From positions 295,338,349 to 295,402,348 of the forward strand of contig NC_089493.1 of assembly GCF_036850765.1 (NCBI RefSeq): DNA of 64,000 nt, given 5' to 3'. The translations under genes were made by a program, and so were the position numbers. This stretch comes from Saccopteryx bilineata. Lineage: Eukaryota; Chordata; Mammalia; Chiroptera; Emballonuridae. Positions within the stretch are counted from its first letter, which is position 1; the number at the start of each line of letters is the position of its first letter. The notes beneath the pieces are model-generated. The model saw only the letters and a program-made list of their open reading frames with translations, was not told the origin of the DNA and searched no databases. This document shows, piece after piece, positions 1,647 through 56,094 of this stretch.

Positions 1647-3194
1647 ATAATTAAGCAATAAAAGATTCTGAAAAAGAAAAAGAGCTTCCCCCCCTCCCAA
1701 CTAATTTTTAATTTTTTTTGCTTTTCATCCCAGCAATAACTTCCCGGCCAGGGCGTTATAATAAGAGGTTCCGACAATAACACCTGCGGTCACGCATCTC
1801 AGAGCAAGATCCCTACGGTTCATCCGAGCCCCAAACTTCGAGTCAGAAATGTCACACGATGAATTCCGGCTTAAGGAGAAGTCTTAGGCAATTACGGCTG
1901 CATTTAATTAAAACAGATTCAATATCCTCCCATGTCCCCACCACCACGAGGAAACTGGAGTCTAACCCGGGCAAAGGCCACATCCGTTCGGACAATATTT
2001 GCATTTCTCAGTTAAAGCCCTTGTGCAAATAACAAAACGGAAGAAGAAAAAGATTACCCAGACGGACTCGCGTTTCAAGTCATTACTTTCTGAAAGCTGA
2101 TTAAACAGGCAAAACCTGGCCAGCGGCCTGCTCTGGTATCACCCACCTACCGGGCTCCACCGAGGTTGCCCTGACGTTCCAGGTAAATTACTTAATTATC
2201 AGACCCCTGCATCTCGGGGTCTCTGAGCCCTGTGCTTCAGAACAAGAACAGATGCTCCACGAGGCAACCAGACTGGCTCCCCTCTCGTCAACGGATCCAG
2301 AGCAGCTCAAATGTATCTGCACCTCAGAACAGCACGCAGCCAACGCCCGGAGTGGAAAAGGGGGAATGGTGAGGAGAAGAAAAAAAACAACCAAAAAATA
2401 AAGAACCCATGAGAGTTGCATCAAGGGATGAAACAGAAGTGACTGAGGCAGACAAGGTCCCAGACGCTGCCCAGGGCTGACCCGACCCTGAGCAGCCCGG
2501 GCGACGTCAGAACCTGTAGTTTAAATTTTTTTTTCACCCAAGATTTGCTGACCGCGGGGAAGGGAGGAACCCAGCCAGTCACACCTACTCTGGGGACATT
2601 CGGCCTGGCTGACGCCTGCTCAGCAGGTAGTTTACCATCAGAAACCGCCCACATCCACACTGGGACGACTCCTCTGTGCCTCGTCCGCCGCGGGAAAAGA
2701 ACTGGACACCTGACGTTCTAAGCTACTTCTTTCTTGAGGGGCATGGTCTTTCCTGATTCTGACAATAGCCCCGTGAGCTGCGGATGTGATTTTGGTGTTT
2801 TTTTTTTCCCATTTGAAGGACAAGGCAGTGGACACTCATCCAGAGCTTAAGCAACGAGCAAGGACTCAGGGACGGTGTGAGTGGCAGAGCTGAGATCGGA
2901 GGCTATCTCTCTGCCTAACTCCAAAATTTGGGCTTTTAAAAGAAATGAGAGTCGTTGGGTTTTTTTCCCTGAGATAGTTGGGGCTCAGCTTGGTCAGGAA
3001 GGGTCTACGAAGGGTGAGCAAGCTGAGCCACGCCTTGATATCCGTGCGGGATTAGGAGGAAGGGAAGACAGGGCTGGGATGTCGTGGCCACGGGTCCCGC
3101 CACCACGAACGCTCACGCCCGCGCCTGGTCTGCGCGCCGCGCAGGCTCTGAGCCCACGGCTTCCCAGCCATCGGCCCGCCCGTCGGCGTCATCA

Positions 3195-49583: not shown

Positions 49584-50075
49584 CACTTTTTTCTTTTATT
49601 CATGTGTCCACCCCCATGGGGTTTCCAAGTGTGCGTTTTTCAATATGCAGAGGCTAGCGGGCTTATCTGTGCTCTTCACTGTACCAACGTGTGACCTGGC
49701 AGTGGTCAAAAACAGCGGATTCTGGTTTAATGACACATACGCTGAAGAGTGGAGGGGGCCACTGTGCCCGTATCCCCAACTTGCTCTGAAATGCATGAGA
49801 AACGGTGTTGGGGACCGAGTAAATAAACAGGGTATTTCTGCACTCTGGACAGAGGTGGCTGGGCCCAAACCCCACCTCACCTGCCTAGTTAACAAAGAGC
49901 TACACCTGGTTCTCATTTGTCTCACCCGGGTTCTCCAGAGAAGACTGGAAGCTACTTTCTTATGAGTGTAAAGTAGATTTGGATGGTATGGTGGGGGTTG
50001 TCTTTGAGTTGCCTTGGAAACTTAATTGAATTTCCAATGGACAACATTTTTTCTATGAATAAAAGTGGATGTGTT

Positions 50076-50447
50076 GCCCTGGCCGGTTGGCTCAGCGGTA
50101 GAGCGTCGGCCTGGCGTGTGGGGGACCCGGGTACGATTCCCGGCCAGGGCACATAGGAGAAGCGCCCATTTGCTTCTCCACCCCCCCTCCTTCCTCTCTG
50201 TCTCTCTCTTCCCCTCCCGCAGCCAAGGCTCCATTGGAGCAAAGATGGCCCCGGGCGCTGGGGATGGCTCCTTGGCCTCTGCCCCAGGCGCTAGAGTGGC
50301 TCTGGTCGCGGCAGAGCGACGCCCCAGAGGGGCAGAGCATCGCCCCTGGTGGGCATGCCAGGTGGATCCCGGTCGGGCGCATGCGGGAGTCTGACTGTCT
50401 CTCCCCGTTTCCAGCTTCAGAAAAATAAAAAAATAAATAAAAATAAA
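50076..50447 (+). mobile_element. tRNA-derived SINE type I inserted in 5' LTR
   Basis: Full-length with TTGGCTCAGCGGTAGAG and a CTTCAGAAAAATAA end. A perfect 15-bp duplication AAAAGTGGATGTGTT flanks it (50061-50075 and 50448-50462). It is absent from the same site of the 3' LTR. Confidence 0.97.
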
Positions 50448-50526
50448 AAAAGTGGATGTGTTTCTGGGAGCAGGGACCTTAAGGCTAAGGAAGAGTAGAG
50501 ACTGTTTGCCATGGCGTCCTCCTGAA

Positions 50527-50529
<3 letters not shown>

Positions 50530-50567
<38 letters not shown>
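50530..50567. repeat. GT microsatellite in 5' LTR
   Basis: 38-bp GT run expanded from a short GT/AT stretch that is still short in the 3' LTR. Confidence 0.95.
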
Positions 50568-50569
<2 letters not shown>

Positions 50570-50660
50570 CTTTATGTCCCTGCCTATCATTTATTTCAAT
50601 TCCATACCTTTTCCTGTTCAAAGACCCCGTAATAGACTCGTCGTGGCTGAACCGCGATAA

Positions 50661-50680
50661 TTGGCGCCCATACGTGTGGC
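50661..50680 (+). promoter_or_regulatory. Retroviral primer-binding site, lysine-tRNA type
   Basis: TTGGCGCCCATACGTGTGGC lies just after the 5' LTR. It resembles the complement of the lysine tRNA 3' end used by betaretroviruses, with small changes after GGCGCCCA. Confidence 0.75.
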
Positions 50681-50735
50681 CATCGAATAAGGGAAAGAGG
50701 AGAGGTGATGGAACTCCCCAGAAGTGTGCGCACGA

Positions 50736-50887
50736 AGTAAGTATTATATCTTCTAGAGAGTGAAGCTTTTAAGTAGAGTTTGGGGGAAGAGTATAATAAT
50801 AAAGTCACACGAAGTTAGTATAAAGCTTCTAGAGAGTGAAGCTTTTCAGTAGAGTTTGGTGAGAAAGTATAATAATAAATAATTCAA
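50736..50887 (+). repeat. 76-bp tandem duplication in proviral leader
   Basis: CTTCTAGAGAGTGAAGC occurs at 50750 and again at 50826, with matching flanks (TATAATAATAAA). The first copy begins GAAGTAAGTA, a good splice-donor consensus; the second has GAAGTTAGTA. Confidence 0.88.
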
Positions 50888-50900
50888 GAGAAAACTAAAT

Positions 50901-51395
50901 ATGGGAGTTGTAGGATCAAAAGTGAGGGACCTTTTTCTTGTACAAATGTTTTTATTTGAGAAGAAGCTGTTTGAACAGAATGAGGTAGAAACAGAGGAAT
51001 GTAAATATGAGAAAAACTCGGAGTCTGAGAATAACTCGGGAGATGAGACTATCACAGCTGTGGCCATTTTAAACTCTGTGCCTCCGCAGCTCTCTGCTCC
51101 CAAAGTCTTTGTCTCAGACCCCTGGAGATCCCCACTCCAACAAGCTTTGGATCAGGCTCGAGATGCAAGGTAAAAAATGGAGGAATTCAGCAATATTAGG
51201 CAAAGTCCTGATGAGCAGCAATATCAAGAATTTGTTCCACGGCTGATTCTGGCAGTTGGAAGAACAGTGATAGAAAAAGAAGTTTATATCAGAATATGCA
51301 TTGATGTTGGGACTTCATACATGCAAGGTCTTGCTTTTGCCACAGCCCTTAAGGTGAGGATTTCAAGAATTTTTGATAAAAGGCAGGACAAATGA
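50901..51395 (+). pseudogene. Betaretrovirus-like gag remnant
   Basis: An open frame starts MGVVGSK, as expected for a myristoylated matrix N-terminus. It runs 90 codons to an in-frame TAA (51171-51173), then continues in the same frame to 51395. The second part has QSPDEQQYQEFVPRL, which resembles the capsid major homology region of betaretroviral Gag. Most of matrix and the capsid N-domain are missing, so a large deletion joins the two parts. It is dead as a gene. The family is inferred from the short motif and the lysine-type primer site. Confidence 0.65.
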
Positions 51396-51716
51396 AAGAA
51401 AAAAGGTCAGGGAAATACTTCTGCCTGTGAATCTTGTTTCCAATGCAGCAGCTAGGTTGGGCCCAGACTGGCAGAGGCTGCAGCCCAGGGGAAGGTAAAG
51501 CAGGGAGGTGAATGGGGAAGCCTTCCCACCCTGGTAAACTAGGTCTGCTGCTCAGCTGGGGTTGAGGTGGAGGCTTTCGGCGGCCCACGACTCAGCATGA
51601 TTAGTCTAGGCCGCCAGTTGCAGCAGCTATTAGAATTTGGGATTTAGTAAATAAAAAGACGTAAGAGTTTGGGGAAATTACAACTTTTTCCCATTATTCT
51701 CTAACTCTCTCTAAAC

Positions 51717-52040
51717 CAGGGGTCTCAAACTCAACTCAGCATGTGGGCCGCAGAGCAAGATCACAGCCGTTCGGCGGGCCGCACTAGGTCTACAAAAGGC
51801 AACTGTGACGCAACACTTTTCAGTGTCACAAAACGACCAGAAACTGTAGTTCGCATCACAACTGCTGTTAACTAAGCTAATATCTAGCTAGGATGCTAGA
51901 GAAATGAAAAATACAAGTAGGCCCCTAGGCTTACTTAATTTTATCCAAAATATTTTGAACTTCGTGGATTAGTCTGTGGGCCGCACAAAATTATTCGGCG
52001 GGCCGCATGCGGCCCGTGGGCCGCGAGTTTGAGACCCCTG
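51717..52040. mobile_element. Non-autonomous hAT transposon
   Basis: 324 bp with perfect 16-bp terminal inverted repeats CAGGGGTCTCAAACTC, and GCGGGCCGC-rich subterminal sequence at both ends. A perfect 8-bp duplication CTCTAAAC flanks it (51709-51716 and 52041-52048), diagnostic of hAT elements. No transposase. It lies inside the provirus, so it is younger than the provirus. Confidence 0.95.
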
Positions 52041-52719
52041 CTCTAAACTATCATTTTATTTCTTTCCTGCTCCATGCCTGGAAAGAGGGCGAAGGGGAAG
52101 CCTGTTTGGACATGCCTAAACAAAAATCTCATACGGCCGACTTGAGATTTTTCAAGAGAGATTTCTGTTTAGTATTTATCCTTACCACACTGCTATTAAA
52201 ATAGCCCTCGGTAAGATCAAGCAGGCCACATGCTAATCTCTAAAAATCCCGGATTTCACTCTTGATTTGTGGAATTGTATGTGAAGTCTCTGTTTAATGT
52301 CCAAAGGTCTCTGTTTTGAAGGCCCGAATTAAGTTTATGCGTGCAAAAATTGGAAATGCCGGCTCTAATATTGTAAAAATAAAATATCATCCCTACAAAT
52401 TTAAAAAAAAATTTAATTAGAACAAGTAAAGCACGCTCATTAAAATTTAAATAAAATGAAACCTAGATCCTAAAGACTTCCTAATTCGGCCAAACTGCTC
52501 CCAGCTAAAGTTGCTGCAGCTACAAAGCTTGAAGCAGGGTGGATTTGCTTAACAAAGGTGTAAATTTTTTTTTTTACTCTTTGAATTGTCTGTTGACTGA
52601 TTGGGTGTGTTTTGATGGGTGTGGGAATGTTGCTTAAAAGTGCATTTGCTGTATTTTGTTAGAGGTTGGCATTGAGACGGGTGTTTCTTGCAGTTTTTGA
52701 GGTCAAGGTGTTGTGAAAT

Positions 52720-52760
52720 GTACTCAATAAATGCTTAAGGGTCAATTGTAAAAAAAAAAA
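52720..52760 (+). other. AATAAA followed by A run within the provirus
   Basis: CTCAATAAATGCTTAAGGG is followed some 18 bases later by a run of A and then G-rich sequence. It looks like the 3' end of a polyadenylated RNA copied into DNA, or it may be chance A-rich sequence. Confidence 0.4.
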
Positions 52761-52936
52761 TGGGGTGGGGGGGGGTCAGATCCTGGAACTCCTGCAAATC
52801 TATTTACTTTGAAGAATTTCTTTTGAATGCTGATGTACAGGAGATGCCAGGCCTCTTTCTTTTGCAAATTTCTACCCTCTTTTTTATCTCTTTCTGAATA
52901 GTTCCAGATGTACAGAAAAGATTTATATAGGCAGAT

Positions 52937-53284
52937 GTGGACTCTCAAAACCCTCAGCGAGATCTTCTGAGCATGGCTTCCGAGGTCTGTAATGACCAAG
53001 AGGAAAAGAAAAGGCAGACAGAGCCCAAAAGAGATCAGGAAAAATACCAGCTCCTGGCACACACCCTTAAAGGCTCCAACGCCCCAAAGGGGCCTCATAG
53101 GACTCATCAGGGCCCTGCTTCAAGAGTGAAAGGGAAGGTCATTGAGCTAAAGCCTACCAGGCTTCTCGGCCCCTACCAGGGCTATACCTTTGCTGTGGGA
53201 CACTGGAAAGGACACTGGAAGTTGCCCCCTCACTCCTCTAAGGGAGGGTTCAGTCTCTTCCAGCCCTGCTCCAGCTACCTGTGA
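52937..53284 (+). pseudogene. Gammaretrovirus-like gag (capsid end and nucleocapsid) remnant
   Basis: A 115-codon open frame. The first 50 residues are charged and include EEKKRQTEPKRDQEKYQLLA, the pattern seen at the capsid-nucleocapsid junction of gammaretroviral Gag (HERV-H/F type). Around residues 84-95, GHWKGHWK stands where a CCHC zinc knuckle would be, but the cysteines are not kept. The remnant differs in type from the beta-like gag piece upstream. It is non-functional. Confidence 0.6.
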
Positions 53285-53363
53285 CCTGACCTTGCCCAGC
53301 CTGCTGGGACTTGCCACTGAAGGCTAAAGGTGCCCAGGGCCATCAGCCTCATCTCATTTCACC

Positions 53364-53498
53364 ATGGATGAGCCTGGGTATTTCTTCCAAGTAGCAGGTA
53401 AACTGATCTCATTTCTTGTGGACATGAGGGCCACTTACAATGCCTTGCCTGAATATTTGGATTTTTATTCATCCCTCGAAGATCTTTGTGGGTGTTGA
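53364..53498 (+). pseudogene. Retroviral protease remnant
   Basis: A short frame, one reading frame off the preceding gag piece. VAGKLISFLVD is followed by MRATYNALPE, aligning with the gammaretroviral protease active-site region; the catalytic Asp is kept but the following Thr-Gly are changed. A stop comes after 44 codons. No flap region follows. Confidence 0.55.
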
Positions 53499-53898
53499 TA
53501 GTCTTTATTTTCTGCTGCTTTGTTTAATATATAGTGTTTCCTTTACTCCTCCTGCCTTAATGCCCCATGCCTATTTTAGGCTCAGACCTGCTCCTAATTT
53601 AGATGAATTTACCTCTGCCACCCAGCACAGTGTATCCCAAGGTTCTCTTCACCACTCTACGATTGCAGAGCTCCAGGGAAAGCACCCTGGGTTCATCTCT
53701 AAAACAGAAGCTCCATCTCCATACGTGCTGCAGATGGCTTCTCCAATCTATCTCAATCGTTATCAGCTAGAAGCAGTGGTCACTGGGACTTGGACTCTAG
53801 CTGCAAAGTGTGGCAATGTGACCACAACTCCAGTGCCTTGTGGACTTTTCCTGAATGTGTGTGACTCCCGCTCCTGTGTGGGACAGTTCTCAGACTGA
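53440..53898 (+). pseudogene. Unassigned proviral open frame
   Basis: 152 codons open between the protease remnant and the polypurine tract, overlapping the protease trace in another frame. There is one hydrophobic stretch (residues about 22-40). I recognise no RT, integrase or envelope motif. It may be decayed pol or env, or a chance frame. Confidence 0.3.
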
Positions 53899-54225
53899 AG
53901 TGGGGTTGGGTTACATTTACAAATAATATGAAGCGATGATGGTGTCAACATGAACTTGGTGAAATTACATTAACATGTTAAGGACATTTAAGACTGTAAG
54001 AATTTTATTAGAGATCCTGTTGAATTAGTTAAGACTTTGCTTGATAATCTAATAAGCTCTAATTACTTAATTGTATTAGGATACTTGTTATAGTATCTGT
54101 TAGCATTGGCTATTTCAATTTTGTTGTTTCTTTTAGAGTTTTCCAGTCTGCCTCCAAATCGGAACATGGGAATTCAGATGAGTATGAATCACAGCACACA
54201 AATTGAAGTTTTAAAAAATAAAAAT

Positions 54226-54238
54226 AAAAAGGGGAATA
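54226..54238 (+). promoter_or_regulatory. Polypurine tract
   Basis: AAAAAGGGGAAT directly before the 3' LTR, the usual plus-strand primer site of retroviruses. Confidence 0.75.
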
Positions 54239-54682
54239 TGTTGGGGACCAAATAAATAAACAGGGTATTTTTGCAATGTGGACAGAGGTGGCTGGGCCCA
54301 AACCCCACCTCATTTGCCTAGTTAACGAAGAACTACACCTGATTCTCACTTTTCTCACCCATGTTCTCCGGAGGAGGCTGGAAGCTGGTTTCTTATGAGT
54401 GTAAAGTAGATTTGGATGGTATGGTGGGAGTTGTCTTTGAGTTGCCTTGGAAACCTAATTGAATTGCGACGGACCACATTTTTCCTATGAATAAAAGTGG
54501 ATGTGTTTCTGGGAGCAGGCACGTTACGGCTCAGGAACAGTAGAGGCTGTTTGCCGTGGTGTCCTCCTGAACCTGTGTGTGTATATATATATCTTTAAGT
54601 CCCTGCCTATCATTTATTTCAATTCCATATCTTTTCCCGTTCGAGGACCCCATAATAGACTCGTTGCAGCTGGACCGTGACA
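54239..54682 (+). repeat. 3' LTR of the provirus
   Basis: 444 bp, TGTTGGGGACC to GTGACA. It aligns over its length with the 5' LTR once the SINE and GT expansion are removed, with scattered substitutions. The ATGAATAAAAG signal is kept. Confidence 0.9.
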
Positions 54683-56094
54683 AAACAGGTTAACCTAGTG
54701 ACATGCAGATGGACAGATGTGTCATAAAGCCCGTGTGGCCCCACGTTAACTGCAGAATCAAGGAGAGGAGTATTGTGGATGATCACTGTATCATTCTTCC
54801 AACTTTTCTGAACTAAAAATATATATATATATATTTCCATACTAAAATGTTGGGGGGGGGGAATTCAGTGAGGGTAGAAACCATAAATACATGATATCAT
54901 CAACCTAAACAGCACCTGTTGGCCCAATGACAGACTCAGAGCAGAACTGAACTCCGGTAATCACACGAAATCCCCGGAGGTAAATTCCGGAAAAGTGTCA
55001 TGTCCGGCAAAGCGGGAGTCCGTGGCTCACGGAAGCATCAGAAACTGAGAATGACGATAAAACTACAATATTTTAAAAAACAAACAAAAACACCCATTCA
55101 ATAAGGGAATAATGTATACATCTGAACACTCCGTAACAAAGGTTCTAGAAGGCATGAACCCCAAGGAAGCCAGACCTGCCGGCCAAGAAGCCCTGCTCTC
55201 GTAGGAGGACGCCTGCAGGCGCACCCGCTCCCCTGCCCGGGAGAGCCGGCTCCCCCCACAGTTCTCCTAGAAAACGGCTCTGGCCCAGGGCTCCCTCCTC
55301 CAGCTCTCTGGCTTTCACGCTGGCTCTCTCCCTTGCATTCCCCACAGGTCTTAGTTCACCAATGACCGCGGCGCCCCAGAGCACGTGTTTTCTGGGCCAG
55401 GTCTGATAACAGCGGACCTGAGGGAGGGCAGGGGTCAACAGACGACCCCCGAGATCATCTCCAAACCTTTGGAAGGGGACAGCGACAGCCCCGCGGAGGT
55501 CTTCCCTGGAAGGGGATGCGTCTACCTGCCTCGCGAGGCCGCCGGATGTTAACGGCGGGCCGTGGCATGGCGAAACCAGGGAGTGACAAAGGATTACCAC
55601 CTGGTTCGCAGGATCACACCGGCCGCCCAGTGGGAGGGACAGGAGCTACAGGTCACACGTGTGGAAGCAGTGACACCGCTCAGGGGCGCCCGCAGTGGTC
55701 CAGGTGCCGTATATGGTCCGGGTCAGGGTCGCATCGGTGAAGAGGCGGAGAGGACAAGTCGGTGAGTGACGTGCTTTGGAGAAGCACGTGTCAGGACTCG
55801 CTCATCGATTACGCGGCCCGGGGCACGAGCCAGGGAGAGGAACCCAAGGGCCCCTCTCAGATTTTCTCTGGAACTCCAGGAAATGGAGAAGCAATGTGTA
55901 TCTTTTGCCCATCTGAGTTCAGGGTAGGAGATTTATACTAGACATGTTTGCGGCACACAAAGGGATGAAAAGGCTCAGAACAATACTACACAAGTCAAGA
56001 ATGCTTATAACACCATCTCAGCTCCAGTCAAACGGCACCCCCCCGGGGTCTATAAACGCATCCGGAACCACAGTACGAGTCCCAGGGTCACCCT

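What the first reader, a model, noticed from the sequence alone, without database searches (positions are those of the whole stretch)
49806..54682. Mosaic provirus: beta-like ends and gag start, gamma-like nucleocapsid and protease
Seen: LTRs, a lysine-type primer-binding site, a 6-bp target duplication and a capsid-like motif (QSPDEQQYQEFVPRL) all point to a betaretrovirus-like element. Further on, the EEKKRQTEPKRDQEKYQLLA region and the VAGKLISFLVD protease trace look gammaretroviral. Inference: either an ancient recombinant retrovirus, a non-autonomous element packaged by several viruses, or a second retroviral fragment inserted into the first. If the same chimaera recurs elsewhere in the genome with one structure, it would be an undescribed non-autonomous ERV family.
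Basis: partly seen in the sequence, partly recalled or inferred. Interest (0 to 1): 0.75.

Follow-up and report, generated by a model that had tools for sequence, protein, structure and literature searches.

The report
Env-less mosaic bat retrovirus family
The element looks like an old, internally deleted member of a bat retrovirus lineage in which the place of the envelope gene is filled by a non-coding scrap of a different retrovirus; the same scrap is carried by a much younger, numerous family in the same genome.

Summary
The provirus is real (49806-54682): two LTRs, a lysine-type primer site, a 6-bp target duplication with one mismatch. Its chimaeric structure recurs: five other copies show the full order, two more its 3' part, and two best-40 lists give 63 loci. 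Nested insertion is rejected.

A longer copy with the same LTR (L029) has beta gag, dUTPase, protease, RT and integrase, then the window's 52050-54238 block, gamma-like piece included, directly before the 3' LTR. So the gamma piece sits in the envelope slot. The window copy is a deletion form: half the capsid lost, nucleocapsid-to-integrase replaced by 266 bp of unknown source.

A young family whose LTR does not align to this one carries the same block (69-80% by piece); in 37 of 40 scored places it lies behind a beta gag. One copy's LTRs differ at 1 of 431 bases; its block has 36-45 stops per frame. A hairpin at the block's start hints at an RNA element, but it is not seen in all copies, covariation is inconclusive and the NXF1-type motif is absent. 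No description was found in print, in limited searches.

The parts
49800..49805 (.). target-site duplication, left (aaacgg)
49806..50659 (+). 5' LTR, interrupted by a SINE
50076..50444 (+). tRNA-type SINE inside the 5' LTR
   Evidence: repeats elsewhere in the window
50662..50679 (+). primer-binding site, lysine type (TGGCGCCC...)
   Evidence: tRNA assignment recalled
50745..50879 (+). leader with a 59-nt tandem duplication
50901..51173 (+). beta gag start (matrix region); capsid N-terminal half missing after it
51174..51449 (+). beta capsid C-terminal part to start of nucleocapsid, with a further internal gap relative to L029
51450..51715 (+). 266-bp segment of unknown source, present in the 6 other short copies with this stretch held (one of them in part), not found in the long forms held
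51717..52040 (.). hAT-type DNA transposon with CTCTAAAC duplications, not found in the other copies fetched
   Evidence: type recalled from the termini
52050..52640 (+). envelope-slot block, first part: non-coding, with a candidate RNA hairpin near its start (about 52090-52240)
52640..52790 (+). approximate place of a degenerate integrase scrap, seen in 5 of 10 block copies at E 3e-4 or better, not in the window row itself
   Evidence: coordinates estimated from L021
52897..53700 (+). gamma-like capsid C-terminus, nucleocapsid, protease and start of pol; protease motif reads D-M-R instead of D-T-G
53701..54233 (+). rest of the block, unassigned, shared with L029 and L043
54219..54238 (+). polypurine tract
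   Evidence: by eye
54239..54682 (+). 3' LTR
54683..54688 (.). target-site duplication, right (aaacag)

Best explanation
The window holds one copy of a non-autonomous LTR element that arose from a betaretrovirus-like ERV by internal deletion, with a 266-bp segment of unknown source at the main gap. The parent had LTR - beta gag - pro (dUTPase, protease) - pol - [non-coding block with gamma-like capsid/nucleocapsid/protease scrap] - LTR and no envelope gene. The block most likely entered by template switching between co-packaged RNAs of a beta and a gamma element (inferred). It was kept while the lineage split, changed LTR and primer type, and expanded in the germ line. Short copies carry no enzymes and were presumably moved in trans by Gag-Pro-Pol of long copies with the same LTR (inferred). 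The block's role is not shown: either a passenger, or a cis-acting RNA element standing in for export functions lost with envelope.
For: Same order in L003, L015, L021, L024+L004, L026+L011, most pieces 83-94% identical to the window, 52741-52930 at 75-78%; 6-bp duplications at all 6 copies counting the window, 3 exact and 3 with one mismatch. Long form L029: Gag_p24 1.5e-39, Gag_p24_C 1.5e-24, zf-CCHC_5 1.8e-11, dUTPase 4.9e-24, RVP 1.9e-19, RVT_1 3.5e-10, and rve 2.7e-6 (below its cut-off), ahead of the block. Second long form L005+L028+L041 with RNase H (1.7e-14) and integrase (9e-10), then the block's first part. Young family: 37 of 40 scored block places lie behind a gag place, 36 at 4045-4062 nt and one at 3009; block directly followed by the 3' LTR in L043.
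Against: The gamma donor is not found: the best relative, L042rc (76% DNA), gives no Pfam or PDB hit for its own gag frame and shares the changed protease motif. The nucleocapsid piece of L029 scores no better against gamma than beta (z 2.2 and 0.7 versus 3.7), and L043's protease piece is undecided (1.1 and 2.2 versus 1.6). The 266-bp segment 51450-51715 is unexplained and is not in the long forms, so the short form is not a plain deletion of them. Only two long forms with this LTR were read beyond gag-pro, both damaged, and L041 only through the block's first part. No tree was built. Trans-mobilisation is inferred.
Confidence: 0.8

Rival explanations
1. The gamma-like piece is a secondary insertion into a beta provirus at this locus.
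For: None beyond the mosaic itself; a real secondary insertion (hAT) does exist at 51717-52040.
Against: The same order at many loci and in three groups of copies, one with another LTR.
Confidence: 0.02
2. The short form came first and the long forms gained gag-pro-pol by recombination with an autonomous beta virus.
For: The short form has segment 51450-51715 that the long forms held lack, so it is not a plain deletion of L029.
Against: The young long family shares the block at about 79%, and L029 and L043 also match (86.6% over 388 columns) from the integrase end to within about 50 nt of the block, so the pol-block arrangement is old.
Confidence: 0.12
3. The block is a pure passenger with no function.
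For: 36-45 stops per frame in L043; no AAGACA motif in the sense strand of 8 of 8 blocks; covariation 1 of 24 pairs, reached by 177 of 500 shuffles, and an unfavourable covariation term in RNAalifold; Rfam no hit near a gathering score; start of block not folding better than shuffles in L003 and L015; the window's antisense folds nearly as well as its sense strand (z -1.99 versus -2.74); in L021 another window of the block folds better (-3.2) than its start.
Against: Kept through about 21% divergence in replicating lineages; uneven conservation along the block (chi2 68.9, 15 df, p 7e-9); strong fold at its start in L043 (z -3.65, 0 of 200 shuffles; antisense 0.26).
Confidence: 0.6

Closest known systems
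Bat endogenous betaretroviruses of PMC3621094 (passages read)
   Same: bat hosts, lysine primer sites of both kinds, dUTPase in pro, and a group (VIII) with a gamma-type piece at the 3' end
   Different: there the gamma piece is an envelope gene; here it is gag-pro scrap and no envelope frame is left in the copy read
SERV-K/MER11 of macaques (PMC11379458; passages read)
   Same: beta ERV with a recombination-derived non-coding stretch before the 3' LTR; there it is a working RNA transport element
   Different: there it lies behind envelope and comes from another beta LTR; here it lies in place of envelope, includes gamma-like scrap, and function is untested
Mosaic or noncanonical human ERVs (PMC4724089; passages read)
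   Same: recombinants that reintegrated with one structure at several places
   Different: there mostly within one class; this one joins class II ends with a class I-like interior
Type D retroviruses with gamma-type envelope (passages of PMC3621094 and recall)
   Same: beta gag-pro-pol, gamma sequence at the 3' end
   Different: no envelope frame here

Membership tests
Betaretrovirus-like (class II) ERV | lysine primer-binding site | tested here: met
   TGGCGCCC at 50662; young family TGGCGCCCGAACAG; feature as stated in PMC3621094, exact tRNA recalled
Betaretrovirus-like (class II) ERV | beta-type gag and dUTPase in pro | tested here: met
   in long forms L029, L006 and the related copy L037/L042; absent from the window copy through its deletion
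Betaretrovirus-like (class II) ERV | 6-bp target duplication | tested here: met
   6 of 6 copies, 3 exact and 3 with one mismatch; class rule recalled
Non-autonomous LTR element | many copies, one structure, no pol | tested here: met
   a degenerate integrase scrap is present in some blocks
Non-autonomous LTR element | moved in trans by a helper | not testable with these tools
   long forms with the same LTR exist (L005, L006, L029)
Type D retrovirus with gamma-type envelope | gamma-type envelope gene behind pol | tested here: not met
   L043 has no frame over 133 codons on either strand between integrase end and 3' LTR; one copy read
Carrier of a constitutive transport element | NXF1-type AAGACA loop | tested here: not met
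   0 of 8 blocks, sense strand; motif from PMC4174252
Carrier of a constitutive transport element | RNA export or polysome activity | not testable with these tools
   needs a reporter assay

The most novel reading that the evidence does not exclude
The non-coding block is a working cis-acting RNA element, pieced together from gamma and beta retroviral scrap, that took over nuclear export or translation of unspliced RNA when the lineage lost its envelope gene, and so let an envelope-less retrovirus become a high-copy, recently active germ-line element in a bat.
Probability: 0.18. Interest if true: 0.72.

Novelty: new variant of a known kind. Interest (0 to 1): 0.52.

Why it matters
Known beta-gamma recombinants gained a gamma envelope. 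Here a beta lineage appears to have lost envelope and carried dead gamma gag-pro scrap in its place through an old and a very young expansion. That gives a natural series (old short, old long, young long) for asking what a retrovirus keeps when it turns into a purely intracellular element, and a defined 2.2-kb block that can be tested for RNA activity.

Tried and rejected
Captured host mRNA: the AATAAA plus A-run near 52745 suggested a transduced 3' end, but the other copies aligned lack it. Nested insertion: rejected by recurrence. Rfam and AAGACA searches of the block: nothing convincing. Covariation of the hairpin: inconclusive. Source of 51450-51715: its genome search did not complete. No phylogeny was built; identities, profile hits and shuffled alignment scores stand in for it. 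Counts from the genome search are lower bounds, since only the best 40 (DNA), 144 (protein) or 150 (family) places were scored. My note says 7 of 8 rows for the protease motif; the count is 6 of 8.
Full report
What is there. The window element runs from 49806 to 54682 between a 6-bp duplication with one mismatch. Its LTRs differ at 51 of 460 aligned bases (K2P 0.122), or K2P 0.105 over the first 269. At rates recalled for mammals (2.2e-9 to 4.5e-9 per site per year) the latter is roughly 12-24 million years. A SINE splits the 5' LTR and a hAT-type transposon splits the interior.

Recurrence. A search of the same genome with the LTR head, which included part of the SINE, gave 40 scored places of 2291 candidates. 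I fetched 20 stretches of about 10 kb around places of that list. Of these 20, 7 carry the gamma-bearing block (L003, L004, L007, L011, L015, L016, L021), 2 carry a beta interior (L005, L006), and 11 show only LTR pieces within the stretch fetched. With neighbouring stretches, five other copies show the full order leader, matrix, capsid end, 51450-51715, block, LTR: L003, L015, L021, L024+L004, L026+L011. Most pieces are 83-94% identical to the window; 52741-52930 is at 75-78%. L016+L027 lacks the gag part and L007 starts inside the block. The best-40 lists for two block pieces (40 of 1393 and 40 of 4227 candidates scored) share 17 loci at spacings of 735-1342 nt and together give 63 distinct loci, the window and L029 included. 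LTR divergence in the five other copies is K2P 0.031-0.100.

Where the gamma piece belongs. L029 has the same LTR (89% over its head), then beta gag, dUTPase, protease, RT and integrase by Pfam (the integrase match below its cut-off), then the block from 52050 to the 3' LTR. Its RNase H appears deleted, since RT thumb and integrase lie in one frame. Its capsid frame matches solved class II capsids, for example an ERV-K Gag at 4.3e-28 and a Gag-Pro-Pol chain at 3.9e-53, and its protease a 13-kDa protease (1nso) at 7.1e-20. L005+L028+L041 is a second long copy with RNase H and integrase ahead of the block's first part, riddled with SINEs; it was not read further. In both, the block starts within a few bases of window 52050. 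So the gamma-like piece lies in the envelope slot.

The short form differs from L029 by loss of the capsid N-terminal half, a further gap in the capsid end, and 266 bp (51450-51715) in place of nucleocapsid-to-integrase. That segment is in the 6 other short copies with that stretch held (one in part) and was not found in the long forms held.

The young family. Beta gag from L006 found 144 scored places of 2016 candidates, many with an open frame of 492 codons. The 3' part of one place of that list, L043 (C2:170383700-170388200), holds the integrase end, then the block at 72, 71, 75, 80, 74 and 69% identity to the window's successive pieces by local alignment, or 79.2% of 2003 aligned bases over the block, then the LTR. 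Using that block as query, 40 scored places of 4742 candidates match at 96-100%. For 37 of the 40 a gag place lies upstream on the same strand, 36 of them at 4045-4062 nt and one at 3009; 3 had none in that list. The two LTRs of the L043 copy differ at 1 of 431 bases. They do not align to the window's LTR at E 1 or better, and its primer site is of the other lysine kind (kind recalled). That the block is directly followed by the LTR was read only in L043 for this family.

Is the piece gamma-like? This genome has gamma gag in plenty (150 scored of 2062 candidates for Gag_p30). Against two of these (L044, L045), the window's protease piece scores z 7.2 and 8.2, versus 0.3 for the beta protease; L029's 9.7 and 6.0 versus 0.1. 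The window nucleocapsid piece scores 5.7 and 0.3 versus 0.8, and L043's 6.3 and 1.2 versus 0.7. But L029's nucleocapsid piece scores 2.2 and 0.7 versus 3.7, and L043's protease piece is undecided (1.1 and 2.2 versus 1.6). The closest DNA relative found is L042rc, 76% over 609 columns, itself gamma-like by score (nucleocapsid z 8.3, protease 7.0 against L044; beta 2.3 and 2.1) but without a Pfam or PDB hit. In the block the protease D-T-G glycine codon reads arginine in 6 of 8 aligned rows (window, L003, L004, L011, L021, L029); L007 has a one-base gap there and L043 a deletion just before it. L042rc also reads arginine at that place. The protease was thus probably dead early.

Second scrap. 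In 5 of 10 block copies (L015, L007, L021, L029, L003) the stretch before the gamma piece resembles integrase (E 1.3e-5 to 2.9e-4); reversed queries gave at best 0.07, and the best unrelated forward match was 0.010.

Does the block do anything? In L043 it has 36, 36 and 45 stops in its frames, the longest open run 105 of 734 codons. L029 and L043 differ unevenly along it (150-column blocks from 61 to 90% identity; chi2 68.9, 15 df, p 7e-9); the integrase-end stretch is 86.6%. The first 200 nt fold strongly in L043 (z -3.65, 0 of 200 shuffles; -3.89, antisense 0.26). For the window the z is -2.13 (7 of 200 shuffles) or -2.74, with its antisense at -1.99; for L029 -1.65 (15 of 200) or -1.92, antisense -1.16. 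L021 gives -2.78, L041 -1.41, L004 -1.38, L003 -0.24 and L015 0.22; in L021 another window of the block reaches -3.2. Covariation does not decide: 1 of 24 pairs has a change on both sides, and 177 of 500 shuffles do as well; RNAalifold's covariation term is unfavourable. The NXF1 loop motif named in PMC4174252 is absent from the sense strand of 8 of 8 blocks. A passenger is the more likely reading; an RNA element is open.

Literature. Full-text searches listed no title or abstract start that describes this arrangement. Passages of PMC3621094, PMC11379458 and PMC4724089 were read, and abstract, outline and passages of PMC4174252. The held library lacks most subscription papers and Repbase was not available, so 'undescribed' is a limited claim. 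The genome is 2.61 Gb, with at least ten contigs of 83-408 Mb; that would fit an emballonurid bat (recalled, untested).

Noticed in passing
window 50076-50444; L003, L004, L005, L006, L007, L008: A SINE sits at nearly the same LTR nucleotide (duplication AAAAGTGGATGTGTT in the window) in several LTRs, in the 5' LTR only in the window and L003, in the 3' LTR only in L024+L004: probably an insertion hot spot. The query held part of the SINE and so favoured such copies.
   Followed up: partly
window 51717-52040: hAT-type transposon with 8-bp duplication CTCTAAAC, not found in the other copies fetched.
   Followed up: yes
genome-wide: Many beta gag copies keep a 492-codon open frame, and the 40 scored envelope-slot blocks are 96-100% alike to L043: a very recent expansion.
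   Followed up: partly
L042 6349-8143 minus: A gamma-like ERV downstream of a beta copy shares the changed protease motif with the block and may be kin of the donor.
   Followed up: partly
window 50745-50879: 59-nt tandem duplication in the leader between primer site and gag.
   Followed up: no
L029 1221-1586 plus; window 52742-53119 minus: An antisense frame of about 120 codons over the gamma piece is open in both; it is not among the frames of 100 or more codons in L043.
   Followed up: no
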